Shown here piece after piece: positions 1,885-4,834 of a stretch of 6,212 nucleotides of DNA. A program made the position numbers and the translations under genes. This DNA is from Desulfocapsa sp. (lineage in GTDB: Bacteria; Desulfobacterota; Desulfobulbia; Desulfobulbales; Desulfocapsaceae). The notes under the pieces were generated by a model, which worked only from the letters and a program-made list of their open reading frames with translations, had not been told where the DNA came from and did not search any database. Position 1 is the first letter of the stretch. Each line of letters starts with the position of its first letter. The stretch covers positions 1-6,212 of the forward strand of contig JAOZTO010000156.1 of NCBI GenBank assembly GCA_029942265.1, read 5' to 3'.

Positions 1885-2832
1885 TCAAAACACAGGATTA
1901 TAATCAAAAAAGTGGTTAGTTATCAAGTTTCTATAGGTTCTAGTTTCACTTCTAGCCACAAATGAATTCGTTACTGCACCCGTCGATGTAAACCGAACCC
2001 CTTCCAGAAATTCACCATCTGTGACTCCTGTTGCTGCAAAAGAAATTTTACGAGAATTTATTAAATCCTCGACTCTGAACACTTTATCAAAGTTATCGAT
2101 ACCACTTGACTTTGCTCTCGCACGATCTGAGTCATCACCATATGATATTTTTCCTTCCAAGTAACCACCAAGACAGCGAATGGCGGCAGCCACTACTGTT
2201 CCTTCAGGGGCAAACCCATAGCCCATATAAATGTCTGCTTTTTGGCCACTAATCGCAGCAAGACAACCGGAAATTTCTCCCTCTTCAATTAGCTTGATCC
2301 GCGCCCCACAACTTCTGACTTCCTTAATCAACCCACGATGACGTTCACGATTCAAAATGCAGACAGTAACATTTTCAGTATATTTTCGTAACACTCTTGC
2401 CACTCGTTTAACATTGGCAGCAGGCGATTGATTAATATCAATAACTTCTCCAACCTTCGGTCCAACAACTATTTTGTACATTTGAAGATTAGGAATAGGC
2501 TTAATTGTCCCATCCTCTGCTATAACAGTGTAAGAAGTGGAATTATTACGTCCATCAGCTGCAGCTCTGTGCGCCTCAAGGGCAACAACCATAATATCCA
2601 TATTCGGCCCCCCCTGTCCTAAAAAGGTTGGCAACGTTACTATTTTATCTCGTTTTTTAAATCTATCATTAATAACAAATCCATTAATCATTAATCTGTT
2701 TAATGTTGTATTAATTGCATTCCTGGCTTCGTTGAGAATCTCTTTATGGTTTCCTAGCCCTTGAATACGAGCCGCTGTAAGTGCCGCAATCTCTGTGGCT
2801 CTTACTATTTCCATTCCATAATTTATATTCAT
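1885..2832 (-). CDS. glpX: GlpX-family (class II FBPase-like) protein, probably catalytically inactive
   Basis: The 315 residues follow GlpX end to end. The N-terminus 'MEIVRATEIAAL' matches 'LEFVRVTEAAAL'. Further matches are 'QMYKIVVGP', 'ILNRERHRGLI' (family 'ILAKPRHDAVI'), 'YGFAPEGTVVAAAIRCLGG' and the C-terminal 'ISFAATGVTDGEFLEGV'. The catalytic and metal half is degraded. Numbered as in E. coli GlpX, and near-colinear with it, the changes are K29 to H29, D33 to L33, E57 to R57, E59 to K59, D61 to R61, D85 to V83 and T90 to H88. The family's GEGE and DPIEGT motifs are gone. E88 (here E86) and E213 (here E210, in APEG) remain. The frame is intact and the fold residues are kept, so it looks like a maintained pseudoenzyme rather than a decaying gene. 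The start fits the family N-terminus. It lies downstream of a class III FBPase, separated by a palindromic repeat. A regulatory or scaffolding role is inference. Confidence 0.85.
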   Translation of the reverse strand: MNINYGMEIVRATEIAALTAARIQGLGNHKEILNEARNAINTTLNRLMINGFVINDRFKKRDKIVTLPTFLGQGGPNMDIMVVALEAHRAAADGRNNSTSYTVIAEDGTIKPIPNLQMYKIVVGPKVGEVIDINQSPAANVKRVARVLRKYTENVTVCILNRERHRGLIKEVRSCGARIKLIEEGEISGCLAAISGQKADIYMGYGFAPEGTVVAAAIRCLGGYLEGKISYGDDSDRARAKSSGIDNFDKVFRVEDLINSRKISFAATGVTDGEFLEGVRFTSTGAVTNSFVARSETRTYRNLITNHFFDYNPVF

Positions 2833-2878
2833 ACTTCAACCCGATTTAATTTATTCTGAGATAAGGGTTCAGTGATTA

Positions 2879-3022
2879 GAGCTTGTTCAACAGTGATGGC
2901 GTCGTAAAAACTCTCCATCTGCTTCGTTGCTGCAAATTTTCTATCATTACGACGTACTTTAGTACGCCGAAGTAATAGAAAATTTACGCGCCTCGCATAT
3001 GGAGTTATTTTTGAACGAGCCC
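2879..3022. repeat. Long imperfect inverted repeat, family A copy 2
   Basis: The ends are GAGCTTGTTCAA (2879-2890) and TTGAACGAGCCC (3011-3022). The inner arms pair around the GTAC-TTTA-GTAC centre near 2954-2965, with blocks such as AAATTTTCTAT/ATAGAAAATTT. The left arm carries about 16 extra bases, including GATGGCGTCGTAAAAA (2895-2910), a motif also seen at 80-95 and, inverted, at 219-234. The core is homologous to 80-206, but ATTTCGTAT has become ATTTTCTAT with matching changes in the other arm. The element ends on the base next to the FBPase stop codon (3023-3025), so it forms the 3' end of that gene's mRNA. A mobile or REP-like origin and an mRNA-stabilising or attenuating role are plausible but unproven. 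Confidence 0.85.
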
Positions 3023-4834
3023 TTAATCTGTTTCCTGGGTTAATTCACGAATTCTGCTCAATAGAGCTGTACTTTGACGTTTTAACAGCTCTCCTTTTGC
3101 AGTATTTTTTATCTTCATCGGCTGCCTGAATTCATCAATTAATTCGATATCAAGAGGAGCAGAAACAAGGTTTTCCGCAGCTTCCTGCATCTCTTCATGG
3201 GTAGGAAGAATAATTCCAAAAAGCTGATATGGTGTATGCACCAATGCATGTCCTCGATTATAATAGGCTGCTGCAAAGCCACCATCAACATTAATAGCTA
3301 CTCCATCACTTGAGGCCATCTGCTTGCCTTCCAGATAATTCACAGGAGTATGTCCGTAAATAACTCGCTGAATACCAAACTCATCTTTTAATTTCTGCTT
3401 AAATGAATCTGTCTGCATATTTTTTTTCCAATACAATGATCGTTCGTCATGATTTTCTTCATTAACCAGAAAGTATCGCTCAAAGGTTTTCATAGCATGT
3501 TTACCAAAAAATGGTGATTTGGGACCACACCAGAGGTAAAAAAACAGAGCTTGATCCTTTTTATCCTGAGGTTCTCCAGATAAATACCTAGCACCGACAC
3601 GCTCTATAGTATCTTGAACAAAGTCCAGTAGATCTCGACCTTTTCTACCGAGAAATTCTTCAAAACATCCATCAGCTTTAGACGGGACAAGTGCGTGAAT
3701 GTTCAATGTATTATTGTGAATATGATACGTTTCACCTTTTTTAAAAAAATACCCGAGCAATCGTTTTAGTTTCGTATTGCTTGTAAATTGAAGTGTAAGA
3801 TCATCTATCACCTCTTGTTCTTCAACTGTTAGTTTTGCAGGATGTTTATAATCAATGGTTGGAAAATAGGTGTCATTAAGGTTAGCTGTGTCCCCATTTT
3901 GCAACATATCTCTAAGGCGATCAAGCCACAGCCTGGATTCCATTTCATATTCCGGAAAGTCTCGGATGGTCTGTTCTTCAATTTTAAATTGAATAACAGT
4001 AAGGGCTTTTTCCATACTTCTTCCCTTATTACTTACCGCCTTGAATCGTCCAGTGATCTTATCAACAGGATAGGTTTTCTCAGCAAAAGCCTCAAGTTTT
4101 GTAGTATCAAAACCGAGACGAGCAATCAATTCAAAATGATCATACCTACAGGTGATACGCATGGCTTCAGCCACAAGGGACTGATTCCCTGCCCCTGCAC
4201 CCATCCATAATATATCATGATTACCAAAGACATAATCAACCATATCTCTGTAAGATTTAGAGGAAAGAATCCGTATTATTTTGTCAGGTTGCGAACCACG
4301 ATCAAAAACATCTCCAAGAACAAGTATGCGATCAAGAAGAATTTTTCGAATACTATGAGCCAAATGACTGATAAGCCGTCTTGATAGTATGGGTTCTTCA
4401 AACACCTGGTCGGGAACAGGAAGTCCTGAAAGTAATCTTTTAATAGTATTACGAAATTCAGGCGGAAAAACATCACCAGTACGATGTCTCAGATTTGACA
4501 GTCTATATTTAAGAATTTGCACAAGACAAAAAATCACGTCTTGAGTATCCATCAGAATATTTTTTTCTGCAAAATATTCATTTTTCCGTATAATTTTTGT
4601 CAGATATTGGATTTTGTTAATACTGAATGTTTTAGGAAGAGCTTCTCGACAAGTCTGATAAAGCATACCAAAGCGGCCACGAAGAATAGCCATAAAGCGA
4701 TCGCCCTCTCCGTGCAGATCACTGATCCAGAGAGTGACAGGGATATTAGAATTAAGTTCATTTTCTATATGCAACAATTGCTGCGCCAGCTTATCCAATT
4801 CATTGGTTTGTAGGCGGAACGTATCTTCCTTCAT
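3023..4834 (-). CDS. fbp: Fructose-1,6-bisphosphatase class III
   Basis: This 603-residue cytoplasmic enzyme hydrolyses fructose 1,6-bisphosphate to fructose 6-phosphate plus phosphate, the committed step of gluconeogenesis. It matches the Bacillus-type class III family (calcineurin-like metallophosphatase fold, usually about 640-670 residues). Metal motifs are complete: SDLHGE (38-43), GDVFDRG (174-180), GNHD (204-207) followed by 'ILWMGAGAGN', then 'LNIHALVP' and GHTPV (494-498). 'AEAMRITCRYDH' matches the family's 'ANIIRICARYDN'. The start has a good GAGAGG Shine-Dalgarno 5 bases upstream. It follows the PA14 lipoprotein gene by 13 bases, so the two are probably co-transcribed. The stop codon directly abuts a palindromic repeat. 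It is somewhat shorter than the Firmicutes enzymes but has no missing motif. Confidence 0.93.
   Translation of the reverse strand: MKEDTFRLQTNELDKLAQQLLHIENELNSNIPVTLWISDLHGEGDRFMAILRGRFGMLYQTCREALPKTFSINKIQYLTKIIRKNEYFAEKNILMDTQDVIFCLVQILKYRLSNLRHRTGDVFPPEFRNTIKRLLSGLPVPDQVFEEPILSRRLISHLAHSIRKILLDRILVLGDVFDRGSQPDKIIRILSSKSYRDMVDYVFGNHDILWMGAGAGNQSLVAEAMRITCRYDHFELIARLGFDTTKLEAFAEKTYPVDKITGRFKAVSNKGRSMEKALTVIQFKIEEQTIRDFPEYEMESRLWLDRLRDMLQNGDTANLNDTYFPTIDYKHPAKLTVEEQEVIDDLTLQFTSNTKLKRLLGYFFKKGETYHIHNNTLNIHALVPSKADGCFEEFLGRKGRDLLDFVQDTIERVGARYLSGEPQDKKDQALFFYLWCGPKSPFFGKHAMKTFERYFLVNEENHDERSLYWKKNMQTDSFKQKLKDEFGIQRVIYGHTPVNYLEGKQMASSDGVAINVDGGFAAAYYNRGHALVHTPYQLFGIILPTHEEMQEAAENLVSAPLDIELIDEFRQPMKIKNTAKGELLKRQSTALLSRIRELTQETD

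What the first reader, a model, noticed from the sequence alone, without database searches (positions are those of the whole stretch)
1885..4834. Catalytically stripped GlpX homologue beside an intact class III FBPase
The GlpX-like protein is colinear with E. coli GlpX and keeps its substrate-side and C-terminal motifs, but K29, D33, E57, E59, D61, D85 and T90 are replaced by H, L, R, K, R, V and H. Only E88 and E213 equivalents remain. The charge reversals (E to R or K) argue against metal binding. The gene is full length and undamaged, so it is probably maintained. Its neighbour is a class III FBPase with all metal motifs. An unrelated-fold pseudoenzyme of the same reaction next to the active enzyme suggests a sensor, such as of fructose 1,6-bisphosphate or another sugar phosphate, or a partner that regulates the FBPase or carbon flux.
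Basis: partly seen in the sequence, partly recalled or inferred. Interest (0 to 1): 0.82.

Follow-up and report, generated by a model that had tools for sequence, protein, structure and literature searches.

The report
Dead FBPase paired with living FBPase
In Desulfocapsa and its relatives, a gene for the sugar-making enzyme fructose-bisphosphatase is followed by a gene for a second, differently folded member of the same enzyme class that has lost the residues its known relatives use for catalysis, so the second protein likely regulates the first, perhaps by sensing a sugar phosphate.

Summary
ORF 1885-2832(-) is a full-length GlpX-fold protein (PF03320, 320.9 bits; predicted model TM 0.90 to a solved GlpX) lacking D33, E59, D61, D85 and T90 of class II FBPases; E57 is Asp or Arg by alignment register. 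The losses are fixed: L33 and an NDRF loop in 120 of 120 nearest homologues and 63 of 63 distinct locus sequences, never Asp or Glu at D85. dN/dS is 0.04-0.07 (5 pairs).

The upstream neighbour, a divergent class III FBPase, keeps its metal motifs. All 76 genomes found to hold it in the order (69 in the window's family, 7 in two others) also hold the GlpX-like gene, adjacent in 75 (median gap 19 nt in 41 loci). In the family, strong class I FBPase hits occur in 18 of 24 genomes without the pair and 0 of 69 with it; in an order sample, in 2 of 67 carriers.

Best reading: the pair replaced class I FBPase, and the GlpX-like protein likely is a non-catalytic regulatory subunit of the class III enzyme, as HisZ is for HisG-S. 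Contact, ligand and effect are untested; one of two phosphate-site basic residues is kept only near Desulfocapsa, so the ligand is uncertain.

The parts
1885..2832 (-). GlpX-fold protein without canonical catalytic residues (pseudo-class II FBPase), 315 aa
2659..2670 (-). codons for the NDRF loop (residues 55-58), in place of the canonical GEGE metal loop
   Evidence: 120 of 120 homologues and 63 of 63 locus sequences; canonical G56-E57-G58-E59 invariant in 16 canonical rows
2575..2586 (-). codons for V83-A84-L85-E86, in place of the canonical D85-P86-(I/L)-E88 metal site
   Evidence: metal role of this site from PMC10289334
2203..2205 (-). codon of E210, equivalent of E213 of E. coli GlpX
   Evidence: 120 of 120 and 62 of 63, Asp in one
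2833..3022 (.). 190-nt spacer between the two genes; contains one copy of a 117-nt dispersed repeat (2894-3010)
3023..4834 (-). divergent class III fructose-1,6-bisphosphatase, 603 aa, metallophosphatase motifs intact (D39/H41, D175, N205/H206, H380, H495 invariant in 55 rows)
   Evidence: PF06874 344.6 bits; invariant columns; AF2 pLDDT 87.1; best fold match 9a7j_A, an integrative model, TM 0.82, 27% identity

Best explanation
The gene at 1885-2832 encodes a GlpX-fold protein that has lost the canonical metal and nucleophile residues, and it most likely works as a non-catalytic regulatory subunit of the class III FBPase encoded just upstream. Shown: loss of the site, its fixation in a clade, purifying selection, near-complete linkage to and co-occurrence with the divergent class III FBPase, and near-absence of class I FBPase in carriers. 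Inferred: the class III enzyme does the hydrolysis; the two proteins form a complex; the GlpX-like protein binds a small phosphorylated ligand (a sugar phosphate such as fructose 6-phosphate or fructose 1,6-bisphosphate is the first candidate) without catalytic metal, in the old pocket rebuilt by the NDRF and EGE elements, and the ligand state changes the activity of the FBPase.
For: Catalytic residues gone and new ones fixed; canonical roles of these residues (PMC10289334). One clade on a long stem with short inner branches: a burst, then constraint. dN/dS 0.04-0.07 in 5 pairs with dS<1.5, against 0.05-0.08 for the FBPase in 3 pairs. 69 of 93 family genomes have the FBPase, all 69 have the GlpX-like gene, 68 adjacent on one strand; 7 of 7 carriers in two other families adjacent. 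Stop-to-start gap -4 to 243 nt in 40 loci, 500 in one with a frameshifted FBPase; median of the 41 is 19. Among 34 loci no other real neighbour family was seen in more than 12 (25 clusters printed). Class I FBPase: strong hit in 0 of 69 carriers and 18 of 24 non-carriers; in the order sample 2 of 67 carriers and 158 of 175 others. The extra canonical class III FBPases of G021 and G081 come with no second PF03320 match.
Against: No interaction, ligand or activity tested. R162, one of the two 6-phosphate basic residues, is Gln, Lys or His in 41 of 63 locus sequences, and Y119 is not conserved, which weakens the sugar phosphate part. In f55 the same FBPase subfamily (55% identical to the window's) occurs with only a canonical GlpX on another contig, so it may work alone there (the gene lies at a contig end in both genomes). 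SAR324-type relatives have the FBPase; their neighbours could not be seen. Carriers are related, so counts overstate independent events: class I exclusivity in the family rests on two genera. Linkage can also reflect shared regulation without contact. In the window a PA14-domain gene ends 13 nt before the FBPase, so the transcript may be longer here. G428 has both systems; weaker class I hits exist in carriers G071, G082 and G085.
Confidence: 0.56

Rival explanations
1. The GlpX-like protein is a new enzyme: the pocket was rebuilt (NDRF, EGE) to act on another phosphorylated compound of the same pathway, without the GlpX phosphatase mechanism.
For: Replacement residues are fixed, not drifting; E86, K120 and nearly always E210 and R164 retained.
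Against: D85, D33 and Thr90 are gone and no other nucleophile or metal cluster is evident from sequence; it does not by itself explain why the gene goes with one FBPase subfamily.
Confidence: 0.19
2. It is a sensor or scaffold co-transcribed with the FBPase but acting on something else (transcription, another enzyme, flux signalling).
For: Operon-like spacing suggests co-expression, not contact.
Against: It follows this FBPase subfamily across three families and varied flanks, while outer genes do not.
Confidence: 0.15
3. It is still a class II FBPase that uses a different metal arrangement (D56 for E57, E86, E210).
For: D56 and E86 are invariant; the fold is GlpX over its whole length.
Against: The main M1 ligand Asp85 and the Thr nucleophile of PMC10289334 are absent in all sequences counted; score below the equivalog cut-off.
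Confidence: 0.06
4. It is a decaying relic of an old GlpX beside the enzyme that replaced it.
For: Catalytic residues lost.
Against: dN/dS 0.04-0.07, 105 of 315 positions invariant in 120 homologues, no stop in 70 matches.
Confidence: 0.02

Closest known systems
Class II FBPase GlpX (E. coli, Francisella, Mycobacterium, cyanobacterial structures)
   Different: M1 metal site, Thr nucleophile, D33 and DGD motif replaced, first basic residue of the 6-phosphate site kept only near Desulfocapsa; linked to a class III FBPase
Class III FBPase (Bacillus subtilis Fbp type, PF06874)
   Same: The neighbour has this fold and the metallophosphatase motifs
   Different: Divergent subfamily: 344.6 bits to PF06874 against about 916 for canonical copies in G021 and G081; coupled to a pseudo-GlpX
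HisZ / HisG-S ATP phosphoribosyltransferase (search listing and start of abstracts of PMC10795190 and PMC10998830; that HisZ is a histidyl-tRNA synthetase relative is recalled)
   Same: A separate regulatory protein acts on an unrelated catalytic partner (the proposed way of working)
   Different: Here the dead protein comes from an enzyme class of the very same reaction, in another fold; complex not shown
B. subtilis with class III Fbp and class II GlpX (YwjI) (recalled)
   Same: Both FBPase classes in one genome
   Different: There both are active and unlinked (recalled)

Membership tests
Class II FBPase (GlpX) | GlpX fold / PF03320 | tested here: met
Class II FBPase (GlpX) | NCBIfam glpX equivalog score | tested here: not met
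   192.8 against cut-off 259.3
Class II FBPase (GlpX) | M1 metal site (Asp85, with Glu57) | tested here: not met
   Asp85 column V/I/A/F in 120 homologues and 63 locus sequences; Glu57 Asp or Arg by register
Class II FBPase (GlpX) | Thr nucleophile (Thr90) | tested here: not met
   Q82/H33/Y5 of 120; H30/Y19/Q13/C1 of 63
Class II FBPase (GlpX) | DGD motif for the furanose hydroxyls | tested here: not met
   EGE in 120 of 120 and 61 of 63
Class II FBPase (GlpX) | 6-phosphate R/K-x-R site | tested here: inconclusive
   R164 in 58 of 63; first position R22, K6, Q31, H4 of 63
Class II FBPase (GlpX) | FBPase activity | not testable with these tools
   needs purified protein
Class III FBPase (neighbour) | PF06874 over cut-off | tested here: met
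   344.6 against 27 bits
Class III FBPase (neighbour) | metallophosphatase motifs DxH, GDxxDRG, GNH, H, GH | tested here: met
   invariant columns in 55 rows, same in two canonical copies
Class III FBPase (neighbour) | PEP activation, AMP inhibition (recalled) | not testable with these tools
   kinetics needed
HisZ-like regulatory pseudoenzyme (works like) | catalytic residues lost, under purifying selection | tested here: met
HisZ-like regulatory pseudoenzyme (works like) | goes with an unrelated active partner | tested here: met
HisZ-like regulatory pseudoenzyme (works like) | complex with, and allosteric effect on, the partner | not testable with these tools
   no complex prediction or bench work here

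The most novel reading that the evidence does not exclude
A two-part FBPase: a class II FBPase that lost catalysis became the dedicated sensor subunit of a class III FBPase with an unrelated fold, and the pair replaced class I FBPase as the gluconeogenic switch of the Desulfocapsa family, moving between families as a unit. An enzyme's dead analogue, not its dead homologue, is its regulator.
Probability: 0.43. Interest if true: 0.78.

Novelty: new variant of a known kind. Interest (0 to 1): 0.63.

Why it matters
FBPase sets the direction of carbon flow between breakdown and synthesis of sugars. Non-catalytic regulators usually descend from the enzyme they regulate; here a dead member of one FBPase class would regulate a live member of a different fold for the same reaction. 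It also bears on annotation: public records name the GlpX-like protein a class II FBPase (names), so carbon models of these sulfur bacteria may count a second FBPase that is probably inactive.

Tried and rejected
Decay of an old GlpX: rejected by selection and intact copies. Chance adjacency: rejected by 75 of 76 carriers. A conserved larger operon: clustering of ORFs in 34 loci found no other real neighbour family in more than 12 of them among the 25 clusters printed; larger clusters were shadow ORFs on the other strand or in other frames of the FBPase. Viral carriage: two viral-contig scans found no relative. Plasmid records gave 50 and 76 matches, all under 60% identity; six GlpX ones were fetched as canonical rows, the rest were not checked for motifs. 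Profile alignment to settle the metal-loop register did not place the loop. Closest canonical GlpX ancestor: not resolved, long stem (a quick tree that flags long branches). Loss of a regulatory domain in the class III partner: alignment shows only scattered short gaps. Cross-linking papers thought to lie behind the 9a7j model: no FBPase passage found in either main text. Literature: GlpX with pseudoenzyme gave 0 papers; pseudoenzyme + fructose + bisphosphatase + bacteria gave 3, judged off-topic from the listing; the listings showed nothing on this pairing, and of the 6 papers I read passages of one. Only PMC-held papers were searched. The third protein search, six viral scans and the last genome search were not used.

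Full report
What is there. The window is contig C156 of a 2.93-Mb draft genome (588 contigs, 88.85% complete) whose nearest named matches are Desulfocapsa. ORF 1885-2832(-) is PF03320, ORF 3023-4834(-) is PF06874. The genome gives one PF03320 match, one PF06874 match and no class I FBPase (PF00316) match; it is a draft, so absence is not final.

One clade, constrained. In a quick tree of 67 rows the 21 chosen pseudo sequences form one clade (SH-aLRT 100) on a long stem (2.15 changes per site on its side of a midpoint root). dN/dS by NG86 for pairs with dS<1.5 is 0.04-0.07 (5 of 136 pairs) and 0.05-0.08 for the FBPase (3 of 136); the other pairs were too diverged and were dropped.

The pair. 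In 93 family genomes PF03320 occurs in 70 and PF06874 in 69. The extra PF03320 match, in G095, is a partial one at a contig end. Of the 69, 68 have the genes on one contig and strand with the FBPase upstream, 49-295 nt between the HMM matches. In G016 the two lie on different contigs: the FBPase match ends 2 nt from a contig end, and the GlpX-like frame also appears cut. In 41 loci the stop-to-start gap is -4 to 243 nt, plus one of 500 (L008) where the FBPase is frameshifted; median 19. In the window it is 190 nt and holds a dispersed repeat. Around the pair, in 34 loci (one genome counted twice, L022/L184), the FBPase and GlpX-like genes are in all 34, and no other real neighbour family is in more than 12. 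In the window a PA14-domain gene ends 13 nt before the FBPase. An order search (242 genomes drawn from a larger group) with the FBPase gave 69 matches: 60 in the family, 2 set aside (G480, 31% identity, canonical type; G493, E 6e-4), and 7 in families f3 and f12. All 7 have the GlpX-like gene directly downstream; in G413 the FBPase is cut by contig ends and the GlpX-like gene follows its 3' piece. Identities of the two genes run in parallel (about 80-84% or 69-72%), as expected if they travel together; misbinning or misplacement of some f12 genomes is not excluded.

Replacement of class I FBPase. PF00316 with at least 230 bits is found in 18 of 24 family genomes without the pair (16 of 17 of genus g5, 2 of 2 of g9) and in 0 of 69 with it. 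The other 6 without the pair are G097 of g5 and five drafts of 72-87% completeness from pair-bearing genera (G005, G066, G070, G092, G095). Weak matches near 150 bits are in G070 (no pair) and in G071, G082 and G085 (pair). In the order sample PF00316 matches 160 of 242 genomes (159 over its cut-off): 2 of 67 pair carriers (G428, G082) and 158 of 175 others (the two searches drew 242 each, by their handles the same set). These genomes are related, so I read this as replacement in few events, not as independent counts. It makes the pair the likely FBPase of its hosts. The D. sulfexigens genome paper names one fructose-1,6-bisphosphatase, UWK_03194, in a CO2-fixing organism (PMC3739170, passages); which of the two genes it is I could not tell.

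Outside. In a phylum sample of 297 genomes, PF06874 is over its cut-off in three: the window's own and two f55 genomes. The f55 genomes carry the same FBPase subfamily (55% identical) and a canonical GlpX on another contig; the FBPase lies at a contig end in both, so its neighbour is not seen. Relatives named Lambdaproteobacteria or SAR324 are 56-60% identical. The FBPase subfamily may therefore be older than the pairing; this is inference.

Mechanism. Shown: loss, fixation, selection, linkage, near-exclusion of class I. Inferred: complex formation, ligand binding, effect on catalysis. The closest way of working is HisZ with HisG-S, where a regulatory protein allosterically enhances an unrelated catalytic subunit (start of abstracts of PMC10795190 and PMC10998830). 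The GlpX-like protein should not be filed as a class II FBPase: metal site, nucleophile and DGD motif were tested and not met. After the last recount I lowered the best explanation from 0.58 to 0.56 and the novel case from 0.45 to 0.43, because R162 is not kept outside the Desulfocapsa group.

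Noticed in passing
window 79-195 and 2894-3010: A 117-nt dispersed repeat with an imperfect palindrome (arms 119-142/147-170 and 2934-2958/2961-2985); 52 matches in the draft genome, 41 of them long copies (40 of 123 candidates scored, so a lower bound). One copy sits between the FBPase and GlpX-like genes, looking like a small mobile or REP-like element.
   Followed up: partly
L148, L149, L150, L154, L157, L159: A second altered GlpX lineage in other families of the phylum: T90 replaced by A, G or S and E213 by Q, D85 kept in 5 of 6; in several loci next to ORFs that look by eye like threonine synthase and methylmalonyl-CoA mutase. 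Two of these genomes (G203, G167) also carry a GlpX with the canonical metal motifs.
   Followed up: partly
L151, L152, L153: Open frames of 562-577 aa with a weak partial PF03320 match (48-60 bits) in G361, G270 and G246: a GlpX-like part in a longer protein.
   Followed up: no
L083, L084: Two family genomes (G021, G081) carry an additional canonical class III FBPase (about 916 bits) beside ORFs that look by eye like glycogen-synthesis genes.
   Followed up: partly
L008 (G011): The class III FBPase of the pair is broken into 450 and 152 aa frames while the GlpX-like gene is intact; true mutation or assembly error not known.
   Followed up: no
window 892-1785: Protein with an N-terminal STAS-like stretch (just under its Pfam cut-off) and a C-terminal PilZ domain, a possible c-di-GMP-linked regulator.
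   Followed up: no
window 387-827: Stand-alone rod-binding (FlgJ N-terminal type) protein of 146 aa without the muramidase part.
   Followed up: no
window 4848-5468: PA14-domain protein with a lipoprotein-like start (by eye), ending 13 nt upstream of the FBPase on the same strand.
   Followed up: no
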